From the IMG/VR virus record IMGVR_UViG_3300031772_000313, positions 1 through 22,370 of that record: a stretch of 22,370 nucleotides of DNA; one strand, given 5' to 3'. Below, in pieces: positions 1 through 22,370 of the stretch (its first letter is position 1; the number at the start of each line of letters is the position of its first letter). This stretch comes from a virus. The notes beneath the pieces were generated by a model that was not told where the DNA came from, did not search any database, and worked only from the letters and a program-made list of their open reading frames with translations. The position numbers were made by a program, and so were the translations under genes.

Positions 1-1
1 A

Positions 2-112
2 AATGATGTTTTTTGTGCTGATGTAAATAAAAATAATGAATGCAAAGATTTTACACCTAGTTTGTGGTGTTTGTTCCGTCCTTTTTTAGATTTGTTAGAT
101 AAATTATTTTAA
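2..112 (+). CDS. 3' end of an unidentified gene (5' truncated by the window)
   Basis: An open frame runs from the window edge to a TAA at 110-112, giving the last 36 residues of a protein, ending LDLLDKLF. The fragment is too short to assign a function. I treat it as coding because it is open from the edge, lies in the same direction as all other genes, and stops exactly where the recurrent intergenic module begins (TAAATAAAGTGTAAAAT). That module also begins at the stop codon of the next gene, at 770. It could still be a chance open frame. Confidence 0.5.
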   Translation, partial: NDVFCADVNKNNECKDFTPSLWCLFRPFLDLLDKLF

Positions 113-183
113 ATAAAGTGTAAAATAAAAAAAGTGTTGTTGTAAAAAAAGATTTGTAACGTATAAGTTAGATAAATGAGGGG
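110..183 (+). repeat. Diverged copy of the intergenic promoter/leader module
   Basis: The 5' part, TAAATAAAGTGTAAAAT (110-126), and the 3' part, GTATAAGTTAGATAAATGAGG (161 onward), match the module at 770-858. The middle is about 11 bases shorter and unrelated. The clean TTGACA and TATTAT boxes of the other copies are missing here. A weaker TTGTAA (140-145) and TATAAG (162-167) pair with 16-bp spacing is possible. This copy may therefore be a weak promoter, or one that needs another factor. Confidence 0.6.
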
Positions 184-190
184 TAAGAAA

Positions 191-772
191 ATGAAAATAA
201 CAAAAAGTGATCTGCGTGATGGTATATATTATGATGGTACTTTAATTTGCAATGAAAATTTAAAAATTGATTGTGATATAATTATAACAGGTTATTTGGA
301 TTGTCGAGGCGATTTGGTTTGTGGGGGCAATTTGGTTTGTGGAGGCGATTTGGTTTGTCGAGGCGATTTGGTTTGTGGGGGCAATTTGGTTTGTCGGGGC
401 AATTTGGATTGTGGGGGCTATTTAATTTGTCAAGGCAATTTGGATTGTCGAGGCAATTTGGTTTGTGGAGGCTATTTGAATTGTCGAGGCTATTTAATTT
501 GTCAAGGCTATTTGAATTGTGGAGGCTTGCTAACAATAAAATCAAAGTTAGTTGTAAAATACCTGCAACTAGGTAAAATAGGGTCACGCAATAGCGACAG
601 CATATTTTACATAACGGAAGATGAAGTATTTTGTAAAGTCGGCTGTTTTGAAGGTAGTATGGGTGAATTGGAAAAAGCAATTGCGGATAAGCACAATGTT
701 GATAGTATTTATTTTAAGGAATATATGGAAACAATAAAATATGTTAAGGCGTTGTCTTTGTTATATGTGTAA
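191..772 (+). CDS. Hexapeptide-repeat, beta-helix-like protein
   Basis: The protein has 193 residues. An ATG at 176 is in frame, but it lies inside the SD stretch. AGGGG (179-183) sits 7 bases before ATG 191, so 191 is the better start. Residues 35-112 are 13 tandem six-residue units of the form [DNY]-L-[VDIN]-C-[GRQ]-G, preceded by degenerate units. Such a regular hydrophobic/Cys/Gly period of six predicts a solenoid beta-helix, as in bactofilins and hexapeptide-repeat proteins; this is inference from periodicity only. Residues from about 113 to the end form a separate non-repeat domain containing VGCFEGSMGELEKAI and a Tyr-rich tail. There is no signal peptide or membrane segment. Its own leader and the promoter-bearing module after it suggest a short, independent transcription unit. 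The function is unknown. Confidence 0.8.
   Translation: MKITKSDLRDGIYYDGTLICNENLKIDCDIIITGYLDCRGDLVCGGNLVCGGDLVCRGDLVCGGNLVCRGNLDCGGYLICQGNLDCRGNLVCGGYLNCRGYLICQGYLNCGGLLTIKSKLVVKYLQLGKIGSRNSDSIFYITEDEVFCKVGCFEGSMGELEKAIADKHNVDSIYFKEYMETIKYVKALSLLYV
293..526 (+). repeat. 13 tandem 18-bp coding repeats
   Basis: Thirteen consecutive 18-bp units of the type [TAG]ATTTGGNTTGTSGRGGC encode the hexapeptide repeats of the surrounding gene. Units differ mainly at the first base of the first codon (Tyr/Asn/Asp) and in the fourth and fifth codons. Because a stop-free 18-mer is repeated, all three + frames and one - frame stay open here, which creates spurious overlapping reading frames. Confidence 0.9.
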
Positions 773-865: not shown

Positions 866-1276
866 ATGAGTGATATAACAATAAATATTTTAGATCCAAA
901 CTTTGAGAGAGCAATTAGAAGGGAAATAGATAAACCGATTGGCCTTCTTTATAAAAGTGATTTGGAGAAAGTGAGAAAATTGTATCTTACTTTTCATGGT
1001 GTTAAAAGTGTACAAGGAATAGAGTATTGTACTAATTTAGAAATATTTTATGGGATGAAAAACGAGTTAACATGTCTAGATTTATCAAAGAATACAAAAT
1101 TAAAAGAATTATATTGTAATGTCAATGAGCTGACAAGTTTAGACTTATCAAGCAGTATTGATTTAGAAATTTTACATTGTCAGTATAATAAATTGACAAG
1201 CATAGACTTGTCAAATAATGTGCAATTGCGATCAGTGAATTGTTCAAATAATGTAAAGATAGTAGGTCGTGTTTAA
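866..1276 (+). CDS. Small leucine-rich-repeat protein (internalin-J-like repeats)
   Basis: The protein has 136 residues. AGGAG (854-858) sits 7 bases before ATG 866; the in-frame ATG at 851 lies within the SD stretch. Residues 1-60 form a cap containing LDPNFERAIRREI and SVQGIEYCTNLE. Three 21-residue LRR units of the form L-x-x-L-x-C-x-x-N-x-L-T-x-[LI]-D-L-S-x-x-x-x follow, then a partial unit. LRRs of this length with a Cys in the strand position are known from Listeria internalin J. There is no signal peptide, LPXTG or membrane segment, so it is probably cytoplasmic. It is a paralogue of the protein encoded at 21083 and of the C-terminal half of that at 20265. Its partner is unknown. Confidence 0.8.
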   Translation: MSDITINILDPNFERAIRREIDKPIGLLYKSDLEKVRKLYLTFHGVKSVQGIEYCTNLEIFYGMKNELTCLDLSKNTKLKELYCNVNELTSLDLSSSIDLEILHCQYNKLTSIDLSNNVQLRSVNCSNNVKIVGRV

Positions 1277-4123: not shown

Positions 4124-5267
4124 CGATATTAAAAAAGCCTTAAAGGTTTTAAAAACCAATGTTACTAATCCTACTAATCTATTAGAAGCTTCTGCTTACA
4201 TATATATTGTTGATTCAAATATATATGTTTACAATGGCAGAGTTGCGATGATGTACACGCTGCCAAATAAGCAGTTATTCAGTGAAAAAGAGAGTATTAT
4301 TGCATTGCCATTAGTTGAGTTTTCAAAATTATTATCAAAAATAAAAACAAAAGAAATTGATATTGAAGTCAAAGATGATTTGATAATAGTTATTGCTAAT
4401 CGGATTAAAGCAGAGTTTATTTTTAACAGGCGGATATTGACACAAGTAGATCTATTATTTGATGGCTATGATCCCGATTTGATTCTTGAATTACCCGAGG
4501 ATTTTAGAGCTGGATTACATTTTTGTAGTTTTTCGTGCGGGAAAAATGATCGAACATCAAAGATACTGATTGACTCTGATTGTATAGTTTCAACTGATAC
4601 TGTCAGGTTATCTTATTATAAATTGGTAGAGGCTTTAAAAGATCGGTTTTTGATTCCTCTTGACTGTGTGCAAGAGATCTTAAAGCATCCAATCACAGAG
4701 TATTATATAAGAAGTAATCGGATATTTTTTACAACTGATGATCATGATTTGTTTATTTCTTTTCCTGTTTTTAATGAAGCTTTCTATGACTATAAGAAGC
4801 TTATCCAGCAACCTTTTACAGATAAAACAGGCATACCTCTTGATAGTAGTTTGATCCATGATGTTGATCTGGTATCAGTTTTATCCGAAGATGATTTTAA
4901 ACGTGACAATGTTATTATTATGTCGATTGATGATGGTTATATAAGTTTTTTTGGTGAGGGTAAAGTTGGAAGAATCGGATCAACAATATTTGAAAAATCT
5001 TTTAAGGGCATTTCATTAACCATTGAAATCAATCCACAATTTTTACAGGATGTTTTGAAAACAAGTCCTATTATGAAGATAAAAGACGATTTGGCACAGT
5101 TTGAAAAAAACAATTTTATACATATTTTCCCAGTTACACCGATCAAAGAGAAATTGGAAACATCAAAAAGACTTTTTTTAAAAGCAGATGAAAAAGTAGA
5201 TGGATTGAATGATGATGCCTCTGAAAAGTACCATGATGGGATCCAAAATTCAGATATGGAATTATAA
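4107..5267 (+). CDS. Sliding clamp (DnaN-like processivity factor)
   Basis: The protein has 386 residues, close to the usual length of bacterial beta clamps (about 366). GGAG precedes ATG 4107. Sequence similarity is weak. The pattern matches three repeated beta-rich domains: an N-terminal DDIKKALKVL helix, the IDIEVKDDLIIVIANRIKAEF strand pairs, and a final NFIHIFPVT strand in the place of the DnaN C-terminal MPMR-like strand. An acidic tail of about 35 residues follows. Position supports the call: it lies between the helicase and the polymerase, with a clamp loader downstream. DnaN dimers encircle DNA and tether polymerase. A structure-based comparison would settle the assignment. Confidence 0.72.
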   Translation: MKLKTDDIKKALKVLKTNVTNPTNLLEASAYIYIVDSNIYVYNGRVAMMYTLPNKQLFSEKESIIALPLVEFSKLLSKIKTKEIDIEVKDDLIIVIANRIKAEFIFNRRILTQVDLLFDGYDPDLILELPEDFRAGLHFCSFSCGKNDRTSKILIDSDCIVSTDTVRLSYYKLVEALKDRFLIPLDCVQEILKHPITEYYIRSNRIFFTTDDHDLFISFPVFNEAFYDYKKLIQQPFTDKTGIPLDSSLIHDVDLVSVLSEDDFKRDNVIIMSIDDGYISFFGEGKVGRIGSTIFEKSFKGISLTIEINPQFLQDVLKTSPIMKIKDDLAQFEKNNFIHIFPVTPIKEKLETSKRLFLKADEKVDGLNDDASEKYHDGIQNSDMEL

Positions 5268-5277
5268 GGGAAAACTT

Positions 5278-7887
5278 ATGAGATCTCTTTTTAAAGAAAA
5301 TTTAAAAAATTCAGATTGTTCTTTTTGTCCACTGTATAAATGTAAAAGCCAAGAAGCTAATATTTTTCATTTTGATAAAACTAAAAAAGCAGGTATTCTT
5401 ATAGTGGGTGAAGAGGTGTCTAAGACAGAGTTTGAGGATCAATTATTATTAACAAACTCATATAATTCCTTTTGGGTTGAGTGGTTAGAAGAGAAAAAAT
5501 TATTTGGTAGAGGCACATTTGATTATGTGCCTTTTATAAACTGTTTTTTTGATAAGTATTCTTTTAGTGTCGAGAATAAAAAGAAAATTAAAGATTATTG
5601 CTCTGCTTTTTTGTATGAATTTATTCAGAAATCAGATTATAGGATCATTATCATTATGGGGGAATCTGCGTTTAAGTCTTTATATGCTTCACGTTTATCG
5701 TCTCGAATTGGTGTTACAGATTATAATGACAAATGGATCGGTTATATTATTCCTGATTTGGATTTAAAAAAAGAAGTTTTTTTGCTGCAAGCTCCCAGCA
5801 CACTAGATTTTAATGTGTCGGGCAAAGAAAAAAATAGGTCTAAATTTATTTTTTTAGAAAACCTTGAAAAAGCCTTTAAAGCAGATGGTGAAGTTTTATT
5901 GATAGAGGCGTTAAGTTTAAACTCAAAAATGAATAGCGTTGAAACATCCACTAATCTAGATGTTGTTAATATTTTTTTAGATCATATTATTGAAAAAGCT
6001 AATCTAATAGCATTTGATTATGAGACAAATGGTAAAAAACCTTATGATAATGAAGGCGTGATTGTGTGTATGTCTATTTCTTATGCTGCACGAACATTAG
6101 CTTTTCCAATTTTTGAAGATGCTGGTTTTTTGGAAAGGATAAAAAAAATATTGACAAATGAGAAGATAAAAAAAATATCCCATAATATGAAATTTGAACA
6201 AAACTGGACACGCTTTTGTCTTGGTTATTCTGTTGAGGGTTGGTTGTTTGACACGATTATTTCAGCACATATTTTAGACAATCGAAAAGGTGTTACAGGG
6301 TTAAAGTTTTGTACCTTTAATAATTTTGGGATAACCGACTATGATAGTGATACGGCACAGTATATCGAGACGTCTGGCAAAGATCCTTATGAAAAAAATA
6401 AACTTGCTTTTGTTTTTTGGAGGCGTGCAGGTATTAGGGATCAGATTTTACAATACTGTGCAATGGATTCTTTTTATACATATCATTTAGCTTTAAAGCA
6501 TATAGATAATTTAGCCAAGAAGCCAAATTTAAGAAAAGCTTATGATTATTTTCATAGGTTGCAATTGGCTTTGGCTGATGTCGAGTTTAATGGGTTTCCG
6601 TGTTCTGTTGAGCGCCTCCTTGAAGAAGAATTGAAAATAGATAAAGAACTTCTTGAAATAGATGAGAAAATCAAATTATCAGCCGAATTAAAAGAATGGC
6701 AAAAAGCATATCCAAGAAAAGCATTTAATTCTGATTCTCCTGATCAGCTAGGGGATCTTTTATATAATATTTTAAATGTTCCTATGAAAAATAAAACAAA
6801 AGGCGGAAAAGGATCTACTGATGTGGATGCTTTGGAGGGTATTGACCTTCCTTTTATTAAATTGCTTTTACGGCATAGAAAATTATCAAAAATAAAAGGT
6901 ACTTATATAGCTGGCTTTAAAAGAGAGTGTAAGAGTGGTTATATACACCCATCATTAAATTTGAATTTGGTTTCAACATATCGATCAAGTTGTACATCGC
7001 CGAATTTACAGAATATTCCAGTAAGAGATCTTATTGCAAAAGAAATATTAAGATCCTGTATTGTGCCTAAAAATGATTTTTTGATAGGTGCTGATTATTC
7101 CCAAATTGAAGTAATAGCTTCTGCCTGTTATCACAAAGATCCGAACATGATTGCTTATATTCTGGATCCATCAACAAATATGCACACAGATACGGCTGCC
7201 GATTTATTTTTTCGTGAATCAAAAGATGTCTTAAAAACAGAGCGTCAAGCTGCTAAAAATGGATTTGTTTTTGCACAGTTCTATGGTGATTGGTGGTTAA
7301 AATGTGCTGAGAATGTTTGGGATCAACTTGATGATGAGACAAAGGCGCATTTAAAAAGTAAGGGTGTTCATGGGTTAGGTTTTGTTAAAAGAGATCATGA
7401 AGGGAAAATAACAGAAGTAACAGGATTTTATAAAGTTGTTCAAGAGGTAGAAAATATCTTCTGGAATGAACGGTTCCCAATTTACAAAGAGTGGAAAAAA
7501 ACAAACTGGAAAAAATATATTAAAAGAGGTGTTATCGATTATTACACAGGTTTTGAGGCCGCTTCAAATTTGGAAAAAAATCAAGCAAACAACACGGCCT
7601 TTCAAGGATCTGCTTTTCATATCATGGGTTTGGCTTTATGCGAAATAAATGATTATTTGAAAGCTAATAACATGAAAACAAAAGTGATTTTGGAAATACA
7701 TGATGATATTCTGATGGATGTAGATAAAGAAGAATGGGAAGGTGGATTAAAAAAAGTAGTTGAGGAGAAAATGATAAAATATGTGCGTGAATACTGGAAA
7801 TGGATAATTCTACCTTTAAAGGTTGAATTTACTTATTACGTAAAAAATTGGGCAACGGCTGAAAAAAAAGAGGTGGTTACATTATGA
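5278..7887 (+). CDS. Family A DNA polymerase with uracil-glycosylase-like N-terminus and 3'-5' exonuclease
   Basis: The protein has 869 residues. AAGGG (5266-5270) is 7 bases before ATG 5278, which is preferred to an in-frame ATG at 5209 inside the clamp gene. Residues 1-220 resemble a family 4 uracil-DNA glycosylase, with C14-x2-C17 as possible iron-sulfur ligands, ILIVGEE and MGESAFKSLY. The usual GEAPG and HPS active-site motifs read GEEVS and QAPS, so glycosylase activity is doubtful. The exonuclease has FDYETNG (about 245), ISHNMKFEQ (about 300) and YCAMDSFYTY (about 393). The polymerase has STYRSSCTSPNLQNIP (about 565), motif A GADYSQIE (about 603), motif B RQAAKNGFVFAQFYG and motif C EIHDDILMD (about 805). 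The KNxFVFxQFYG form of motif B suggests a phage-type enzyme. This is the likely replicative polymerase. Confidence 0.93.
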   Translation: MRSLFKENLKNSDCSFCPLYKCKSQEANIFHFDKTKKAGILIVGEEVSKTEFEDQLLLTNSYNSFWVEWLEEKKLFGRGTFDYVPFINCFFDKYSFSVENKKKIKDYCSAFLYEFIQKSDYRIIIIMGESAFKSLYASRLSSRIGVTDYNDKWIGYIIPDLDLKKEVFLLQAPSTLDFNVSGKEKNRSKFIFLENLEKAFKADGEVLLIEALSLNSKMNSVETSTNLDVVNIFLDHIIEKANLIAFDYETNGKKPYDNEGVIVCMSISYAARTLAFPIFEDAGFLERIKKILTNEKIKKISHNMKFEQNWTRFCLGYSVEGWLFDTIISAHILDNRKGVTGLKFCTFNNFGITDYDSDTAQYIETSGKDPYEKNKLAFVFWRRAGIRDQILQYCAMDSFYTYHLALKHIDNLAKKPNLRKAYDYFHRLQLALADVEFNGFPCSVERLLEEELKIDKELLEIDEKIKLSAELKEWQKAYPRKAFNSDSPDQLGDLLYNILNVPMKNKTKGGKGSTDVDALEGIDLPFIKLLLRHRKLSKIKGTYIAGFKRECKSGYIHPSLNLNLVSTYRSSCTSPNLQNIPVRDLIAKEILRSCIVPKNDFLIGADYSQIEVIASACYHKDPNMIAYILDPSTNMHTDTAADLFFRESKDVLKTERQAAKNGFVFAQFYGDWWLKCAENVWDQLDDETKAHLKSKGVHGLGFVKRDHEGKITEVTGFYKVVQEVENIFWNERFPIYKEWKKTNWKKYIKRGVIDYYTGFEAASNLEKNQANNTAFQGSAFHIMGLALCEINDYLKANNMKTKVILEIHDDILMDVDKEEWEGGLKKVVEEKMIKYVREYWKWIILPLKVEFTYYVKNWATAEKKEVVTL

Positions 7888-10217
7888 CATATAATGATTT
7901 TTTATATCAGAAAAACAAAAAGGAACAATCTAAACAAATAGTTATTGATCGTGAAGATCTTCATCCTTCCCTTTTTGAATATGAAAAGGATCTTGTTTTA
8001 TGGGCTCTGAATAAAGGAAGGGCGGCGTTATTTACGATGACAGGGACAGGGAAAACACTGATGCAATTGGCTTATGCTGAAAAGGTTTATACTGAAAAGA
8101 AAGTAAATGTTTTGATCCTCGCTCCTCTTGGAGTTGTTCAACAAACAATAAGAGAAGCAAAAGAGAAGCTTGATCTTACTGTTTTAGATTTGAAAAAAAA
8201 TGATTTTAAGAATTTTTCCGGCATTAACATAACAAATTATGAAAACTTACATAATATCAATAGTTATGATTATGGTTGTATAATCTTGGATGAAAGCTCA
8301 ATAATAAAAAATTATTCTGGGAAAATAAGAAATACTGTAATTGATCTTTTTCATAAGACGCAATATAGATTATGTTGCACTGCTACACCAGCGCCTAATG
8401 ATTATATGGAAATCGGGAATACAGCGGAGTTTTTAGGGATTATGAAACGTAAAGAAATGCTTTCAATGTTCTTTGTACATGATAGCAGCGACACTCAAAA
8501 ATGGAGGTTAAAAAAGCACGCTGAGGGCAAATTCTGGGATTGGTTATCTTCATGGGCGGTGGTGTTAGTCAATCCGTCGGATCTGGGGTATTCGGATGCC
8601 CGATTCACATTACCGGAATTAGTAATAAGGGAAGTTGTAATACCAAGTGATCATAAGTTCAAAAAAACACTCTTTGCAACACAAGCAGAAACATTAGATG
8701 AAAGGCGAGAAGCCCGAAAACTAACAATAAATGAAAAAGTTAAATTGATCGCTGAGAATATAAACAATTCTAATGAAATTCATATTGTTTGGTGCGATCT
8801 TAATATAGAATCGGATAAGTTGAAAAGGGCTATAAAAGATAGTGTTGAAGTTAAAGGATCGGACTCATCGGAACATAAAGAAAAATCCTTGTTGGAATTC
8901 ACACAAGGAAAAATCAAATGCCTAATCTCAAAACCTTCTATCTGTGGATTTGGTTTAAATTTTCAGGTTTGTCATAATGTTCATTTCATAGGGTTGTCGG
9001 ATAGTTTTGAGGATTATTTTCAAGCTGTTAGACGTTGTTGGCGATTTGGACAGAAAGAAAAAGTTATAGTTAATATCTATACTTCTATTTTAGAAGGATC
9101 TGTGTATGAAAATATAAAGCGAAAAGAATTTGATTTTTTAAGAATGGTGGATGAAATGCGTTTGTTGACAATTGAAAACGTTAAAAATGATATAAATAAA
9201 ATAAAAAAAGTAGAATCTGATTATAATCCGGGCGTTGATATGTTTGTTTGTTCAAATTTAGGAGGTTTAAGAAAAAACATGAAAGTAATCGATCAAAAAA
9301 TAACGGATGATTATAGTGCTTATTGCGGTGATAATGTCGAGGTTTTGCAAGGTTTAAAGGACGGTGCGGTAGATTATGCCATTTTTAGTCCTCCCTTCGC
9401 TGATCTTTATTGTTATTCTGATTCGGATCGTGACATGGGAAATTCAAAAAATTATGATGAGTTTTGGAAACATTTTACATTTTTGGTTGCTGAGTTAAAA
9501 AGAGTAGTGAAAAAAGGGCGGTTGGTATCGATACACTGTATGAACATACCAGCATTAAAAGAGCGTGATGGTTATATTGGGATAAAAGATTTCAAATCAG
9601 ATATAATAAAAGCTTTTCAAGATGTGGGGTTTATTTATCATAGTGATCTTGTTATATGGAAAGATCCTTTATTGGAAGCAGTAAGGACAAAGTCATTAGG
9701 ATTATTACATAAGCAGCTTTGTAAAGATTCGTCATTATCTCGACAGGGTTTACCAGATTATATTATAACGATGCGAAATGGGGGAGAAAATTCTATTTTT
9801 ATTGCTAAACCAGAAGGGTTTAAAAATAGTGTATATGCTGGATCAGATGTTATAGAAGATATAGAAGGTGTCGAAAGAAGTCATTTAATTTGGCGTAAAT
9901 ACGCAAGTCCTGTTTGGATGGATATTCGACAAACAAACGTGCTGAATAAAAATGATGCAAGGGGTGAAAAAGATGAGAAGCATATTTGTCCGTTGCAATT
10001 AGATGTGATTGATCGTTGTGTAGAGTTGTGGTCTAATCCGGGCGAGGTTGTGCTTGATCCTTTTGGAGGTATCGGATCAAGTGGTGCTAGATGTATAGAA
10101 TTAGATAGAAAAGCGATTATAATAGAGTTGAAAAAAGTTTATTATGCTCAGAGTATTTTTAACTTAGATCGTGCTGTGAAAGATAAAAAATTAAATATTT
10201 TTGGAGGTGAAAAATGA
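7884..10217 (+). CDS. SNF2-type DEAD/H helicase fused to a beta-class DNA methyltransferase
   Basis: The protein has 777 residues and starts in an ATGA overlap with the polymerase gene, with GAGGTGG as SD. Residues 1-440 form an SNF2/SF2 motor: FTMTGTGKT (motif I, about 50), ILDESS (motif II, about 134), TATPAPND (motif III, about 167), ICGFGLNFQ and QAVRRCWRFGQ (motif VI, about 382). The methyltransferase spans about 475-777: GDNVEVLQGLKDGAVDYAIFSPPF, with catalytic motif IV SPPF near 501, and LDPFGGIGSSG near 724 as the SAM-binding motif I. Motif IV before motif I is the beta arrangement. SPPF is commonest in N4-cytosine enzymes, although N6-adenine cannot be excluded. Likely roles are modification of phage DNA against restriction and fork remodelling. 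Confidence 0.9.
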   Translation: MTYNDFLYQKNKKEQSKQIVIDREDLHPSLFEYEKDLVLWALNKGRAALFTMTGTGKTLMQLAYAEKVYTEKKVNVLILAPLGVVQQTIREAKEKLDLTVLDLKKNDFKNFSGINITNYENLHNINSYDYGCIILDESSIIKNYSGKIRNTVIDLFHKTQYRLCCTATPAPNDYMEIGNTAEFLGIMKRKEMLSMFFVHDSSDTQKWRLKKHAEGKFWDWLSSWAVVLVNPSDLGYSDARFTLPELVIREVVIPSDHKFKKTLFATQAETLDERREARKLTINEKVKLIAENINNSNEIHIVWCDLNIESDKLKRAIKDSVEVKGSDSSEHKEKSLLEFTQGKIKCLISKPSICGFGLNFQVCHNVHFIGLSDSFEDYFQAVRRCWRFGQKEKVIVNIYTSILEGSVYENIKRKEFDFLRMVDEMRLLTIENVKNDINKIKKVESDYNPGVDMFVCSNLGGLRKNMKVIDQKITDDYSAYCGDNVEVLQGLKDGAVDYAIFSPPFADLYCYSDSDRDMGNSKNYDEFWKHFTFLVAELKRVVKKGRLVSIHCMNIPALKERDGYIGIKDFKSDIIKAFQDVGFIYHSDLVIWKDPLLEAVRTKSLGLLHKQLCKDSSLSRQGLPDYIITMRNGGENSIFIAKPEGFKNSVYAGSDVIEDIEGVERSHLIWRKYASPVWMDIRQTNVLNKNDARGEKDEKHICPLQLDVIDRCVELWSNPGEVVLDPFGGIGSSGARCIELDRKAIIIELKKVYYAQSIFNLDRAVKDKKLNIFGGEK

Positions 10218-17544: not shown

Positions 17545-18126
17545 ATGACATCATTAAATGATTTAATCAGCGTCTTTAATCAAAAAAAGGGTTATCGGGA
17601 TAGACTTGTAAAAGATCTGGATCAGGTGAGTATTGCTATTAGTGCTTCTTATTCCTATATGGTTGATTCTGAAAAAGCACAAATTATAATGCAGAAGGTA
17701 GCTAAGGAGACGCAGGAAAGTATTAAGTTTCATGTTGAGGATCTTGTCACTACCGCAATTGAAAGTGTTTTTCCGGAAACATATAAATTTTTATTAGAAT
17801 TTGAGATAAAGCGAAATAGGACAGAAATCAATATCTTGCTTTTAAAAAACGGTGAAAAGGTATCACCTATGGACTCTTCGGGGGGTGGTTTGATAGATGT
17901 CATATCATTTGCTCTCAGACTGTCTCTATGGAGTTTGTATAAGGGAAAAAAACAATCGATAATGATTCTAGATGAACCGTTTAAATTTCTTAGTCGGGAT
18001 TTGCAGGATAAAGCCGGGCAAATGTTAAAGCAACTATCATCTATGTTGGGGATTCAAGTAATAATGGTTACACATATCCCGGATTTGATAAGAAATGCTG
18101 ATATGGTTTTTGACTTATCAAATTAG
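17545..18126 (+). CDS. Split Rad50/SbcC-type ATPase, C-terminal half
   Basis: The protein has 193 residues. Its start follows the upstream stop directly, with GGAG as SD. A helical arm spans residues 1-75. The ABC signature is DSSGGGLID (110-118), followed by VISFALRLSLW. Walker B and D-loop are SIMILDEPFKFLSRD (138-152), and the H-loop is H177 in VIMVTHIPDL. No Walker A is present; it is in the protein at 14508. The two polypeptides together provide a complete Rad50-like nucleotide-binding site. Divided Rad50-like genes with this signature are familiar in Firmicutes phages, so the split is natural and not a frameshift. A terminator follows, closing the core operon. Confidence 0.88.
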   Translation: MTSLNDLISVFNQKKGYRDRLVKDLDQVSIAISASYSYMVDSEKAQIIMQKVAKETQESIKFHVEDLVTTAIESVFPETYKFLLEFEIKRNRTEINILLLKNGEKVSPMDSSGGGLIDVISFALRLSLWSLYKGKKQSIMILDEPFKFLSRDLQDKAGQMLKQLSSMLGIQVIMVTHIPDLIRNADMVFDLSN

Positions 18127-18137
18127 TATTATAAAGT

Positions 18138-18165
18138 GACAGGTGTAAAAAGCCTGTCTTTTTTT
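18138..18165 (+). terminator. Rho-independent terminator (repeat copy)
   Basis: GACAGG (18138-18143) pairs perfectly with CCTGTC (18153-18158) across a 9-base loop, followed by seven T residues. It ends the transcript of the replication/recombination operon. An identical hairpin lies at 22278-22305. Confidence 0.9.
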
Positions 18166-18206
18166 ATTATTTATCGTAAATAAAGTGTAAAATATTAAAA
18201 ATATAT

Positions 18207-18235
18207 TTGACATGAAATATAAAAAATGATATTAT
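18207..18235 (+). promoter_or_regulatory. Consensus extended -10 sigma70-type promoter (repeat copy)
   Basis: TTGACA (18207-18212), a 17-bp spacer and TATTAT (18230-18235) with TG one base upstream. It differs from the promoter at 800 by one spacer base. The predicted start is near 18242-18243. It would drive the right-hand accessory cassette. Confidence 0.87.
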
Positions 18236-18275
18236 AAAGTATAAGTTAAATAAATAATTTTTTAGGAGCAATGGA

Positions 18276-18449
18276 ATGACAAAATTAGTAGTAAACAAAA
18301 ATGATGATGGTTTTGTGGCACTTGATTCAAACTGTAAAGAGTATTTTACAGCTTTATCATTAGACGAGATCAATCAAGCGATTTTGGATGATGGTTATAT
18401 TTTTGACGGTGAATTTTTTATAAAAAATGATGAAGGATTTAATGTTTAA
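18276..18449 (+). CDS. 57-residue acidic hypothetical protein
   Basis: AGGAG (18264-18268) sits 7 bases before ATG 18276, right after the promoter and leader. The protein is acidic, with alternating strand-like segments (KLVVNKNDDGFVALD, YIFDGEFFIKNDEGF) around a short helix (SLDEINQAILDDG). That composition suits a small soluble alpha/beta protein. No family is recognised. As the first gene behind a consensus promoter it is probably highly expressed, as is typical of small early phage proteins that act on host targets; that role is inference. Confidence 0.72.
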   Translation: MTKLVVNKNDDGFVALDSNCKEYFTALSLDEINQAILDDGYIFDGEFFIKNDEGFNV

Positions 18450-18461
18450 TTAAAAAATTGA

Positions 18462-18496
18462 ATACACCCTCTATCTTTTATCGATAGCGGGTGTAT
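18462..18496 (+). promoter_or_regulatory. Strong intercistronic RNA hairpin without a U-tract
   Basis: ATACACCC (18462-18469) pairs with GGGTGTAT (18489-18496). After one mismatch, CTATC (18471-18475) pairs with GATAG (18483-18487) around a 7-base loop, TTTTATC. The following sequence is AAATAAAAAGG, not a T-run, so an ordinary + strand terminator is unlikely. On the - strand the downstream sequence is only moderately T-rich. It may be an RNA-processing site, a 3' stabiliser or a weak terminator between the first two genes of the cassette. Confidence 0.6.
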
Positions 18497-18515
18497 AAAT
18501 AAAAAGGATTGTAGA

Positions 18516-18848
18516 ATGAGAACATTAGAAGCAAAAAAACAATCGTTATATCGGGAAATACAAAAAAGGTTAGATTCTATATACCATAGATTGCAGATCT
18601 ATTATAATAGTTATGCTTTCAATGTGTTGTTTCGTGATCTCATTATTTTGATCAATGATGAACCGTTTAAGCTTTCGACTGGTGGATGGATAAAGCTTTG
18701 TGATTTATTGCAAAGCAAGAAGACAGAAATTCAAATTATATCGATTGTTGAAAGAGAAAAAGAATTCAAGCCGATTTATGATGATCTATTATTTGATGTA
18801 GGCGTGGTAAACGGTTGTAATAAAGAAATTTTTGAGATGAAGGAGTAG
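18516..18848 (+). CDS. Hypothetical 110-residue protein
   Basis: AAGGA (18504-18508) is 7 bases before ATG 18516. The N-terminal 45 residues are helical and basic (LEAKKQSLYREIQKRLDSIY). Then come FRDLIILINDEPFKLSTGGW and a pattern suggesting a mixed alpha/beta fold. There is no membrane segment or known motif. Its stop TAG overlaps the SD (AAGGAG, 18841-18846) of the nucleotidyltransferase-like gene 4 bases downstream, so the two are likely translationally linked. A partner role is possible but not shown. Confidence 0.7.
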   Translation: MRTLEAKKQSLYREIQKRLDSIYHRLQIYYNSYAFNVLFRDLIILINDEPFKLSTGGWIKLCDLLQSKKTEIQIISIVEREKEFKPIYDDLLFDVGVVNGCNKEIFEMKE

Positions 18849-18852
18849 AATA

Positions 18853-19584
18853 ATGGATGCTATTAAGTTTTATTGTACTAATAAAAGAGTTTTGAATGCG
18901 TTGTTTTTGTATGATCACCTTGTAAAAAAGCATAAAAGTAAGTTTATTTTGGGTGGTAGTTTATCTTTAATGTTACAAGGTGTTATTCAGCAAAGAGATG
19001 TACATGATTTGGATTTAGCTTTTAATAAGTTTGTCAAATTTCAAAAAACAAAAGTGATTGAGGGATCTGATTGTATCAGACAGTCATTCTATGTTGATAC
19101 TTGTAAGCGTAGTGATACTATAAAAGACATACAGTTAGTACCTGTCGATTTATTTATTCGACCTGACGCTGTGTATAAAGAGGTGAAAATAGAAGTTTAT
19201 TATCATGATCAAAGAGTTCTTTTACTGGAATGGTTACCGCTGCAAAGTCTTGGACAAATAATGGAGGCAAAATTAAAATTTTTACACAGGGGTTACTGGA
19301 AGCATTTAGATGATATTACTGCTTATGTTGAATATCTGAAAGAAAAGAACAGAATGTATGATGTTTATCAAGGTCTTTGCAAAGAGGATAAAAAAGATGA
19401 TGATGGTTGTATAAACCGTTTTGCACCATCCCCATTAAGTGGTAGATTAAAAGACAATGATGGTGGTGTTGGTGATCCTGTTACAGATAATGATAATGAG
19501 AATGAGGAAGATCCTTTTATTGATGATTATAATACGCCTGTTACATGTAAAAATGAAAAAATACCAAGTGGGGGTTTAAAATGA
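18853..19584 (+). CDS. Nucleotidyltransferase-fold protein (AbiEii-like)
   Basis: The protein has 243 residues, with AAGGAG 6 bases before ATG 18853. The nucleotidyltransferase pattern is present: LGGSLSLMLQG (33-43, the GGS motif), R48 and D52-x-D54 in RDVHDLDLAF, and a third acidic residue, D99, in PVDLFI. LGQIMEAKLKFLHRGYWKHLDDITAY follows, as in AbiEii/MNT-type proteins that recognise small or RNA substrates. The C-terminal 65 residues are acidic, low-complexity and probably disordered. Family members include tRNA-modifying toxins and antibiotic-modifying enzymes. The phage role here could be host takeover or repair of damaged tRNA, but it is unproven. Confidence 0.68.
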   Translation: MDAIKFYCTNKRVLNALFLYDHLVKKHKSKFILGGSLSLMLQGVIQQRDVHDLDLAFNKFVKFQKTKVIEGSDCIRQSFYVDTCKRSDTIKDIQLVPVDLFIRPDAVYKEVKIEVYYHDQRVLLLEWLPLQSLGQIMEAKLKFLHRGYWKHLDDITAYVEYLKEKNRMYDVYQGLCKEDKKDDDGCINRFAPSPLSGRLKDNDGGVGDPVTDNDNENEEDPFIDDYNTPVTCKNEKIPSGGLK

Positions 19585-19859
19585 ACATAGTTTTAAATGT
19601 TAAAACAAGGGATTTAAATGTAAAACTACATCCCAATACAGAATTCGCTGCTGTTTATATTGATCATATCACAGTGAAGGAATTTGCTGAAAGTGTGATC
19701 AAATTAGAGGATGATGATAAAAGCAGATTAGTGGCTTTTATTTTTGACAGCATTGACTTAAAAGCGTTAGATCTAGCGCACTTTACTATTTTAAAGGGTG
19801 TAAGAGATGAACTAACGAAAAAAATCAGTGCTTGTACAATAGACAAAAGAAGGTGGTAA
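19581..19859 (+). CDS. Hypothetical 92-residue protein
   Basis: The start lies in an ATGA overlap with the nucleotidyltransferase-like gene, with GGGGG as SD. The N-terminus looks like beta strands (MNIVLNVKTRDLNVKL, then EFAAVYIDHITVKEF). The C-terminal half is helical (LEDDDKSRLVAFIFDSI, VRDELTKKI). No family is recognised. It is soluble, slightly charged, and tightly coupled to its upstream neighbour, so the two may be made in fixed ratio. Confidence 0.7.
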   Translation: MNIVLNVKTRDLNVKLHPNTEFAAVYIDHITVKEFAESVIKLEDDDKSRLVAFIFDSIDLKALDLAHFTILKGVRDELTKKISACTIDKRRW

Positions 19860-19862
19860 AAG

Positions 19863-20249
19863 ATGAGTGTTATTGTGTTTAGCCATAATAAAAAGGATAT
19901 AATTCTTTATAATATTGGTTGTGTTTTGGTACTTTTGGCACTTGTGTTTTTAGCGTTTCTTATTTTTTATGTGTTTACTGATTTTTTTGAAAATGAAGAC
20001 AAACAAATACCAAAAACAGCATCATTAGTGTGCCATAGCAAGCTAATCTCTAAAATTGAGTGTTATAAATTTGAACTTGTGTACGATGTAAAAAAAGAAT
20101 GTTATGATCAAATTGAGATCGTCAACAATTTAATTTTCTGTTATAATTTTGATAAAAACAATGTAAAACGGTTTGTTAAAGCTTATCCTGTAAATAATAT
20201 TAAGTTTATCAGGGCTTTGTATATTGAACCAAGACCAGAAGATCGATAA
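19863..20249 (+). CDS. Single-pass membrane protein (128 residues)
   Basis: AAGGTGG precedes ATG 19863. One hydrophobic helix lies at about 14-40 (LYNIGCVLVLLALVFLAFLIFYVF) after a short basic N-terminus, followed by an 88-residue hydrophilic domain with four Cys (C57, C67, C80, C93). By the positive-inside rule the N-terminus is inside and the domain outside, although this call is weak. No known motif is seen. Its stop overlaps the SD of the next gene. Confidence 0.7.
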   Translation: MSVIVFSHNKKDIILYNIGCVLVLLALVFLAFLIFYVFTDFFENEDKQIPKTASLVCHSKLISKIECYKFELVYDVKKECYDQIEIVNNLIFCYNFDKNNVKRFVKAYPVNNIKFIRALYIEPRPEDR

Positions 20250-20264
20250 AGGAGGATTTTTAGT

Positions 20265-21080
20265 ATGAATTTAGAAGAATTAAAAAATGTTATTTTTGAA
20301 AACGCAGTTGAAAGAAATCTATACCATCAAAGTAGTATAGAATCAATGTTATTGCACCTTGTAAGTGAAGTTACAGAAGTCTATCAAACTGTAAAAGATG
20401 GAGGACTTGATGATTTTATTGCAGAGAATCGGCGAGGGAATTCGCTTTCAAAGTATACGCCTGAGCTAATGTTAGAAGATAAATTTAAAAAATTTTTTGA
20501 GGATAATATTAAAGATAGTTTTCAGGATGAATTAGCTGATATTATTATACTAACATTATCAATATGTGCTTATTATCAAGTTGATATTCAGAATTCTGTA
20601 ATGCAAAAGGTACGGTATAATCGTATTCGTGATAAAGGTGTCCACGATCAAAAAAAGGTGTGTAGTAATGAAAAAGTAATTATCCCTGATCCACAATTTG
20701 AAAGAGCAATCAGAGAAAAATTAAATAAATTGTGTGGGGATATTTATAAAGATGATTTAGAGCAGATTAAAGTTTTAGATGTTGATGGGTTGCGCATTGC
20801 AAATTTACAAGGTATTGAATATTTTAATGATTTAGAAGTACTTGATTGTTCTAGAAATCCGTTGAAGGTCATTAATTTGTCAAGAAATCTTAAATTAAAA
20901 GAGCTTTATTGTAGTAATAATCAATTGTGTTCACTTAATTTATTTAATAATATACATTTAAAAGAGTTGTATTGTCAAGGTAATGAAAAATTAGATGTTA
21001 TAGACTTATCTAATAATGTTAATTTAGAGTGTGTAAAATACTCTGGTGTTATAACAATGAAAAAAGGGGAGGGTAAATAA
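20265..21080 (+). CDS. MazG-like pyrophosphohydrolase fused to a leucine-rich-repeat domain
   Basis: The protein has 271 residues, with AAAGGAGG upstream of ATG 20265. Residues 1-127 match MazG/dUTPase-like all-alpha NTP pyrophosphohydrolases: E35-x2-E38 (SEVTEVYQTVKDGG), E89-x2-D92 (QDELADIIILTLSI) and K115/N119 in QKVRYNRIRDKG. Four acidic metal ligands are present, so it could be active on (d)NTPs or (p)ppGpp. From about 138 the protein switches to the LRR cap IPDPQFERAIREKL and NLQGIEYFNDLE, then Cys-containing 21-residue LRR units to the end. This cap and these repeats are also found at 866 and 21083. The frame is continuous with no sign of a sequencing fusion. The LRR may target or regulate the enzyme. 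Confidence 0.8.
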   Translation: MNLEELKNVIFENAVERNLYHQSSIESMLLHLVSEVTEVYQTVKDGGLDDFIAENRRGNSLSKYTPELMLEDKFKKFFEDNIKDSFQDELADIIILTLSICAYYQVDIQNSVMQKVRYNRIRDKGVHDQKKVCSNEKVIIPDPQFERAIREKLNKLCGDIYKDDLEQIKVLDVDGLRIANLQGIEYFNDLEVLDCSRNPLKVINLSRNLKLKELYCSNNQLCSLNLFNNIHLKELYCQGNEKLDVIDLSNNVNLECVKYSGVITMKKGEGK

Positions 21081-21082
21081 AA

Positions 21083-21880
21083 ATGAATAAACAAATAGTA
21101 AATATTCCTGATCTGAACTTTGAACAAGCGGTTAGAGAGATAATAAAGAAACCAACCGATGATATTTATCAAAGTGATTTAGAAAAAATTAAAGAATTGG
21201 ATATGTCTTATTTGGATATTAAAAGTTTACAGGGTGTCGAGTATTTCACTAATTTGACAACGCTTTACTGTAATAATAATGATCTAACGAGCCTGGATCT
21301 ATCCAAGAATGTTAATCTTACAGGGCTTGATTGTTCTACTAACCAGCTAACGAGCCTTGACATATCGAAAAATGTTAATCTGACAGAGCTTAGATGTTAT
21401 ACTAACCCACTAATGACTCTGGATGTATCTAAGAATGTTAATCTTAAAATACTTTTTTGTATGGCTAACCAGCTAACGAGCCTGGATGTATCTAAGAATG
21501 TTAAACTTATAATACTTTCTTGTTATAAGAACCCACTAAAGACTCTGGATGTATCAAAAAATGTTAATCTGACAACGCTTTCTTGTTATTTTAACCCAAT
21601 AAAGACTCTGGATGTATCAAAAAATGTTAATCTGACAGCACTTTCTTGTTCTTATCAACAGCTAACGAGCCTGGATCTATCCAAGAATATTAAGCTGACA
21701 GAGCTTTATTGTGGTGTTAACAAACTAACAAGTCTGGATGTATCGAACAATGTTAATTTGGTTAAGCTCGGTTGTAAAAGAAACCAACTAAAAAGCCTGG
21801 ATCTATCCAAGAATGTTAATCTTACAGGGCTTGATTGTGATAATGCTGTAAAATTGATAAGAAGTAAGGATGGTGAATAA
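21083..21880 (+). CDS. Leucine-rich-repeat protein with nine Cys-ladder units
   Basis: The protein has 265 residues, with GGGGAGGG about 9 bases before ATG 21083. Residues 1-57 form the shared cap (IPDLNFEQAVREII, SLQGVEYFTN). Residues 58-246 are nine exact 21-residue LRRs of the form L-x-x-L-x-C-x-x-N-x-L-x-x-L-D-[LVI]-S-[KN]-N-x-x, then a truncated tenth. Eight of the nine keep the Asn; all nine keep the Cys. This is the repeat type of Listeria internalin J, where stacked cysteines form a ladder. No secretion signal or anchor is visible, so a cytoplasmic protein-binding role is likely. It lies 2 bases after the MazG-LRR gene. Confidence 0.85.
   Translation: MNKQIVNIPDLNFEQAVREIIKKPTDDIYQSDLEKIKELDMSYLDIKSLQGVEYFTNLTTLYCNNNDLTSLDLSKNVNLTGLDCSTNQLTSLDISKNVNLTELRCYTNPLMTLDVSKNVNLKILFCMANQLTSLDVSKNVKLIILSCYKNPLKTLDVSKNVNLTTLSCYFNPIKTLDVSKNVNLTALSCSYQQLTSLDLSKNIKLTELYCGVNKLTSLDVSNNVNLVKLGCKRNQLKSLDLSKNVNLTGLDCDNAVKLIRSKDGE
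21254..21820 (+). repeat. Nine tandem 63-bp LRR-coding repeats
   Basis: Units of exactly 63 bp encode the 21-residue LRRs. Some units are still very similar at the DNA level: a 45-bp stretch at 21290-21334 recurs exactly at 21794-21838, eight units later, and units around 21541 and 21604 share most of their bases. Such identity, including at silent positions, points to recent duplication or gene conversion. Confidence 0.9.
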
Positions 21881-21881
21881 A

Positions 21882-22253
21882 ATGGAAGTAAAATGCAAGA
21901 ATTCTTGTCCGATTTGTGATGCTTTTGAAGATGTAAGAAAAAAGGAGAATTTAACAATGTTGTTAAAAATTAAAAGAAAAATAGGTGTAGAGCTTTTAGC
22001 GCTGCGATCATTCGGTTTAAAGGATTATTTTTTTTCATACCGAAAAGAACAAGTTTTTTATTGGACGTTGGCCTTTATTTCTATAATAGCGACAATTTTA
22101 AACGTTTTCAGCAATAAGATTTGTTTTTTTATTTGGCTCGTGACCAATCTTTTATGGATGATTGTTGATTATAAGAAAAAAATCTATCCACAAGCGTTTT
22201 TATTTTTTATTTATTTTATTTTGGCGATCTTGGGTATAATAAACTGGAAATAG
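21882..22253 (+). CDS. PnuC-like small membrane protein with Cys-rich N-terminus
   Basis: The protein has 123 residues from ATG 21882, which follows GGTGA by 5 bases and lies 2 bases after the upstream stop. An in-frame ATG at 21870 overlaps the LRR gene. A second strong site, AAAGGAG (21941-21947), stands 9 bases before an in-frame ATG at 21957, which would give a 98-residue product without the CKNSCPICDAF segment. Three hydrophobic helices span roughly 56-73, 75-91 and 98-119. The ending LVTNLLWMIVDYKKKIYPQ, then FIYFILAILGIINWK, resembles the C-terminal half of PnuC-type vitamin transporters and small phage membrane proteins. It is too short for a full transporter. Confidence 0.6.
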   Translation: MEVKCKNSCPICDAFEDVRKKENLTMLLKIKRKIGVELLALRSFGLKDYFFSYRKEQVFYWTLAFISIIATILNVFSNKICFFIWLVTNLLWMIVDYKKKIYPQAFLFFIYFILAILGIINWK

Positions 22254-22277
22254 CCTTTATAAATAATGTTATAAAGT

Positions 22278-22305
22278 GACAGGTGTAAAAAGCCTGTCTT
22301 TTTTT
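22278..22305 (+). terminator. Rho-independent terminator (repeat copy)
   Basis: GACAGG (22278-22283) pairs with CCTGTC (22293-22298), followed by seven T residues. It ends the right-hand cassette 25 bases after the last stop codon. Confidence 0.9.
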
Positions 22306-22346
22306 ATTATTTATCGTAAATAAAGTGTAAAATATTAAAAATATAT

Positions 22347-22370
22347 TTGACATGATATATAAAAAATGAT
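22347..22370 (+). promoter_or_regulatory. Promoter, truncated by the window end
   Basis: TTGACA (22347-22352) is followed by the same 17-bp spacer as the promoter at 800, including the TG of the extended -10. Only the first base of the -10 box lies inside the window. A further transcription unit presumably begins to the right. Confidence 0.75.

What the first reader, a model, noticed from the sequence alone, without database searches (positions are those of the whole stretch)
20265..21080. MazG-like pyrophosphohydrolase fused to internalin-J-type LRRs
One uninterrupted frame joins a MazG-like domain with intact ExxE and ExxD metal ligands to a cytoplasmic LRR cap and repeats. I know of no described MazG-LRR architecture. 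MazG-type phage enzymes are linked to (p)ppGpp or nucleotide-pool control. An LRR would add a protein-recognition arm, for example to sense a host or defence protein or to localise the enzyme. The neighbouring free-standing LRR protein has the same cap and could compete for or share the target.
Basis: partly seen in the sequence, partly recalled or inferred. Interest (0 to 1): 0.75.

Follow-up and report, generated by a model that had tools for sequence, protein, structure and literature searches.

The report
Phage nucleotide-cleaving enzyme with binding arm
A bacterial virus carries a single gene in which a nucleotide-cleaving (MazG-type) enzyme runs straight into one of the virus's own leucine-rich-repeat binding proteins; this pairing was not found in any relative searched, but one small insertion or deletion would turn it back into two ordinary genes, and no function has been shown.

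Summary
20265-21080 is one open frame of 271 codons: a complete MazG-type domain (about residues 1-132) followed by a complete internalin-J-type cap and leucine-rich repeats (about 137-271). All superfamily catalytic residues are present (E35, E38, E89, D92, K115, Y118, N119, R122). A structure model with an alignment (mean pLDDT 85) gives two folded domains and a short loose linker; the LRR half matches InlJ best (Z 20.2). The architecture looks unique in what I could search: none of 80 viral MazG homologues has a C-terminal LRR; 38 genome loci with the same cap are mostly secreted LRR proteins without MazG; 391 Clostridia genomes showed no MazG-LRR protein. The junction lies exactly at both native ends, with a leftover Shine-Dalgarno and ATG one frame off, so it probably arose by joining two neighbouring genes and is one indel away from two genes. 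The MazG half is an outlier, changed at 12 of 31 near-invariant family positions. Best reading: a one-off gene fusion giving a nucleotide pyrophosphohydrolase with a cytosolic binding arm, in a strong-promoter accessory operon. The (p)ppGpp idea is weak. Sequencing error or recent frameshift cannot be excluded without reads.

The parts
20265..21080 (+). MazG-LRR fusion gene, 271 aa
   Evidence: single open frame; two-domain model pLDDT 85
20265..20660 (+). MazG-type all-alpha NTP pyrophosphohydrolase domain, native C-terminus at about codon 131
   Evidence: phrog_9236 E 5.7e-12; 80 viral homologues, aligned ones ending ..YNxxRxxxHGKxY or a near variant
20367..20378 (+). ExxE metal-binding motif (E35, E38)
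   Evidence: E35 46/46 and E38 45/46 conserved in aligned homologues
20529..20540 (+). ExxD metal-binding motif (E89, D92)
   Evidence: 46/46 conserved
20649..20690 (+). junction: poly-A, Shine-Dalgarno-like AGGTG and out-of-frame ATG at 20668, at the place where the free LRR genes start
   Evidence: sequence; SD+ATG density 1.3 per kb inside genes
20676..21080 (+). InlJ-type N-terminal cap and about 4-5 LRR units with cysteine ladder
   Evidence: 3bz5 Z 20.2; phmmer InlJ E 2.9e-21
21083..21880 (+). free-standing LRR paralogue, 265 aa, about ten 21-residue repeats
866..1276 (+). third LRR paralogue (listed ORF begins 851; the start with SD is ATG 866)
18138..18257 (+). terminator plus sigma-70-like promoter repeat that opens the operon holding the fusion
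22278..22370 (+). second copy of terminator plus promoter repeat, closing the operon (cut by contig end)

Best explanation
A phage gene fusion. A complete MazG-type nucleotide pyrophosphohydrolase was joined end to end with a complete copy of the phage's own cytosolic InlJ-type LRR protein when the stop/start region between two adjacent operon genes was lost. The product should hydrolyse (d)NTPs to (d)NMP and PPi (inferred from intact catalytic residues) and, because enzymes of this superfamily work as dimers or tetramers (established knowledge), each oligomer would display two or more LRR arms. The arm most likely docks the enzyme on a protein partner in the infected cell, host or phage (inferred). 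Shown: the frame, both domains, the catalytic residues, the fold of the LRR, the uniqueness in the collections searched, the junction at both native ends. Inferred: translation as one protein, activity, oligomer, docking, the partner.
For: Open frame and strong SD; MazG family match and catalytic residues conserved; InlJ sequence and fold match; two-domain model with loose linker; homologues end natively at the junction and lack LRR; free LRR paralogues start at the junction; LRR half shows dN below dS against free LRRs, e.g. 0.39 against 2.27 (dS saturated); the exposed positions of the repeats are variable and the scaffold conserved, as in binding LRRs; other identified genes in the window show no obvious frameshift breaks; a phage MazG that was tested acts on dNTPs (PMC6850273).
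Against: One single case. A one-base indel in an A-rich stretch would give two overlapping genes, and an out-of-frame ATG with an SD-like site remains. The MazG half is changed at 12 of 31 near-invariant subfamily positions, so activity or substrate may differ. No partner, no expression data, no close relative.
Confidence: 0.5

Rival explanations
1. Two genes, not one: the contig carries a one-base sequencing or assembly error, or a minority frameshift allele, and the true arrangement is MazG followed by an overlapping free LRR gene with its own ATG.
For: Junction coincides with both native ends; ATG 20668 with SD-like AGGTG 7 nt upstream lies one frame off right at the LRR start; SD+ATG pairs occur 1.3 per kb inside genes, so about 5% by chance within 40 nt; 80 MazG homologues and the free LRR relatives are unfused.
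Against: The A runs are short (7 and 5), and no other gene in the window looks broken.
Confidence: 0.3
2. The fusion is real but the MazG half is no longer the point: it has lost subfamily function and serves as a dimerising scaffold that makes the LRR bivalent.
For: 12 of 31 near-invariant positions changed, against at most 3 in any of 35 other members.
Against: All metal ligands and the K/Y/N/R set kept; several changed positions are not conserved in MazZ or DCTPP1 either, so the domain may simply belong to another branch.
Confidence: 0.15
3. Programmed -1 frameshifting at the in-phase A AAA AAG heptamer (20651-20657) makes free MazG (ending GV*) besides the fusion, as in dnaX.
For: Canonical heptamer in phase with an immediate -1 stop.
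Against: 12 such in-phase heptamers in 7048 codons of this A-rich window, so it is nothing special here.
Confidence: 0.03

Closest known systems
Phage MazG-like pyrophosphohydrolases, phrog_9236 (e.g. Cellulophaga phage phi14:2 AGO48937.1; cd11542 by its annotation)
   Same: Same domain, same catalytic residues, similar length and C-terminal end up to H and K
   Different: Free-standing, end at HGKxY; the window's copy runs on into an LRR and departs at 12 of 31 near-invariant positions
MazZ (7ody) and dCTP pyrophosphatase 1 (DCTPP1/RS21-C6)
   Same: Superfamily; ExxD and K..N..R core
   Different: Weak sequence similarity, no LRR
Internalin J LRR domain (3bz5)
   Same: Cap, 21-residue repeats with cysteine ladder, best structural match
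   Different: InlJ is long, secreted and wall-anchored; here short, without signal peptide, behind an enzyme
phrog_7816 phage LRR proteins
   Same: LRR half and both free paralogues match
   Different: The match starts near the end of the MazG part; the MazG domain itself is not covered by that profile

Membership tests
MazG-type all-alpha NTP pyrophosphohydrolase | ExxE and ExxD metal ligands | tested here: met
   E35, E38, E89, D92
MazG-type all-alpha NTP pyrophosphohydrolase | downstream K, Y/N, R of the nucleotide site | tested here: met
   K115, Y118, N119, R122
MazG-type all-alpha NTP pyrophosphohydrolase | profile match | tested here: met
   phrog_9236 E 5.7e-12; Pfam MazG 20.7 bits, just below its cut-off of 22
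phage subfamily phrog_9236 | subfamily-specific near-invariant residues | tested here: not met
   12 of 31 changed
MazG-type all-alpha NTP pyrophosphohydrolase | all-alpha fold shared with solved MazG structures | tested here: inconclusive
   model is all-helical but the LRR filled the fold-search lists
MazG-type all-alpha NTP pyrophosphohydrolase | hydrolysis of (d)NTP; dimer or tetramer | not testable with these tools
   needs assay
Internalin-J-type LRR | helical cap, LRR solenoid, cysteine in each repeat | tested here: met
   3bz5 Z 20.2; C in 18 of 19 repeat units
Internalin (secreted surface protein) | signal peptide and wall anchor | tested here: not met
   frame starts with MazG and ends soon after the last repeat

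The most novel reading that the evidence does not exclude
A phage-made enzyme aimed by a recognition arm: an LRR-guided nucleotide pyrophosphohydrolase that acts locally, for instance at a host replication, nucleotide-signalling or defence protein, and part of a small family of interchangeable cytosolic LRR binders made by this phage.
Probability: 0.2. Interest if true: 0.65.

Novelty: new variant of a known kind. Interest (0 to 1): 0.4.

Why it matters
If translated as one protein, it would be a domain combination not seen in the collections searched here and would show a phage turning a housekeeping nucleotide enzyme into a targeted one. It also makes a small set of phage cytosolic LRR binders testable, since the enzyme half gives a read-out. 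If it is a one-base artefact, it shows how easily such 'new architectures' appear at adjacent genes.

Tried and rejected
Programmed frameshift: rejected, slippery heptamer at background frequency. Close relatives by MazG or by the whole protein in IMG/VR: none. DNA polymerase relatives (40 loci, about 30-40% identity): too distant; no LRR or MazG relative among them by tblastn (the one weak LRR hit, L042, came from another search), and no phrog_9236 match in 17 of their records plus the sister contig. Defence-system models for the fusion: none. Fold without alignment: useless, pLDDT 38. Literature: of 32 papers holding both MazG and leucine-rich repeat, the 20 listed were judged by title and start of abstract; none appears to concern such a fusion.

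Full report
Setting. The window is a virus record of 22,370 bases, 31% G+C, with a replication module: DnaB-like helicase, sliding clamp, family A DNA polymerase, clamp loader, gp32-like SSB, RecA-like protein and SbcCD-like proteins. No tRNA. Its only near relative in IMG/VR is contig 3300031772_000130 (L047, L050, L051), found through the LRR cap. The two contigs begin with the same 132 bases and share repeated promoter elements, and they carry complementary modules (structural, lysis-type and primase-like genes there; replisome here). They may be two pieces of one phage or of two sister phages.

The frame. 20265-21080 reads without a stop for 271 codons. The first 132 residues match phrog_9236 (E 5.7e-12) and, below cut-off, Pfam MazG and MazG-like. 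The rest matches InlJ (E 2.9e-21) and phrog_7816.

The MazG half. An alignment-based scan returned 80 viral homologues. None has a C-terminal extension that could hold an LRR: RxxxHGKxY or a close variant (HGKIC, HSKKY, HEKAY, YGGKKF, HGGKKI) closes every tail that was printed; for three rows (L132, L162, L169) the print began at an earlier motif and did not reach the end, but their total lengths (120-136 aa) leave no room for an LRR. In the window this end reads YNRIRDKGVHDQKKV, then CSNEKVIIPD, the start of the LRR cap. The metal ligands E35, E38, E89 and D92 and residues K115, Y118, N119 and R122 are kept. At 12 of 31 other near-invariant positions the window differs, against 0-3 for each of 35 homologues. 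The homologues were found through a peptide pattern, so very divergent ones are under-sampled; the window's domain may be a separate branch rather than fast-evolving. The profile of this family reaches MazZ, DCTPP1 and other solved pyrophosphatases.

The LRR half. Three paralogues lie in the window (866-1276, the fusion, 21083-21880) and two in the sister contig, all with the same cap. The free ones start with MNKQ or MSDI just before the cap; the fusion's LRR starts at the same place. The best structural match is InlJ, 3bz5, Z 20.2, rmsd 2.3 over 140 residues. Across 19 repeat units the cysteine is kept in 18, and the most variable places are positions 4, 5, 7, 9 and 10, which I read as the exposed concave strand, while leucine and asparagine scaffold positions hardly vary. 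This fits a binding surface. At those positions in the first three repeats the fusion agrees with the sister contig's second LRR at 8 of 15 and with its own neighbour at 2 of 15; small numbers, but they do not favour a target shared with the neighbour. dN is below dS in every comparison with a free LRR, so the LRR has been kept as protein; dS is near saturation and the test cannot separate what happened before the fusion from what happened after it.

Structure. With 51 aligned sequences AlphaFold2 gives mean pLDDT 85, a helical MazG half (about 70-89), a loose linker at 128-130 and a well-defined LRR (91-98, falling in the last 20 residues); pTM 0.56 leaves the mutual placement of the halves open.

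How the fusion arose. Both native ends meet at the junction. An SD-like AGGTG and an ATG (20668) lie there one frame off. Such SD+ATG pairs occur 1.3 times per kb inside the window's genes, so about 5% by chance in 40 bases. The simplest history is two adjacent operon genes joined by a small indel. The same fact is the main threat: a one-base error would create the picture. Reads were not available.

Context. A terminator (18138-18158) and a strong sigma-70-like promoter (TTGACA, 17, TATTAT at 18207-18235) open the operon 18276-22253; a near-identical copy (96% over 110 bases) follows it at 22261-22370. The promoter scan as a whole finds no more sites than shuffled sequence; what singles this one out is its repetition. 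The same promoter element precedes the LRR gene at 866 and the LRR pair of the sister contig. This suggests an early, host-polymerase-driven accessory set (inference). Operon members include a possible nucleotidyltransferase (18853), unknowns, a membrane protein, MazG-LRR, LRR and a PnuC-like fragment.

Is it elsewhere? 38 genome loci with the cap, mostly Bacteroidota and Clostridia MAGs, encode LRR proteins, most with a signal-peptide-like N-terminus and none with MazG ahead of the LRR as far as the printed N-terminal stretches show. In 391 Clostridia genomes no listed match covered MazG and LRR together. Phage and plasmid collections gave either half, never both. The strongest cap match is a Clostridia MAG (L054), which hints at, but does not show, the host.

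Function. The phage MazG that was tested against (p)ppGpp in the paper I read did not bind or hydrolyse it and preferred dGTP and dCTP (PMC6850273). I therefore favour dNTP turnover for the enzyme half, with the LRR as docking arm. MazG-type enzymes act as dimers or tetramers (general knowledge), which would make the arm multivalent.

Verdict. Real in the sequence, apparently unique, with a mundane origin (gene joining) and an untested function. New variant of a known kind.

Noticed in passing
window 104-177, 757-850, 18121-18257, 22261-22370; L050:104-189; L051:14820-14930, 17952-18041: Repeated promoter element (AAATAAAGTGTAAAATATT..TTGACA-17-TATTAT), at 18138 and 22278 with an intrinsic terminator just upstream, in front of LRR, bactofilin-like and other accessory genes; its exact core was found in IMG/VR only in the sister contig.
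   Followed up: partly
window 1-132 and L050:1-132: The window and IMGVR_UViG_3300031772_000130 start with the same 132 bases and carry complementary modules; probably assembly-graph neighbours, one phage or sister phages.
   Followed up: partly
window 7884-10217: SNF2-type helicase fused to an N6/N4 DNA methyltransferase (777 aa).
   Followed up: no
window 5209-7887: Family A DNA polymerase with a weak uracil-DNA-glycosylase-like N-terminal domain (E 0.0014).
   Followed up: no
window 176-772: Bactofilin-like protein made of short GNLxCxG-type repeats, also present, shorter, at the right end of the sister contig.
   Followed up: no
window 18853-19584: GGS..DLDL motif suggests a minimal nucleotidyltransferase; weak AbiEii and aminoglycoside adenylyltransferase matches only.
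   Followed up: partly
window 21870-22253: Membrane protein matching only the C-terminal half of PnuC-type NMN transporters.
   Followed up: no
L139:2584-3348: A MazG homologue with about 135 extra residues at its N-terminus and a native C-terminus: another extended MazG, not LRR.
   Followed up: no
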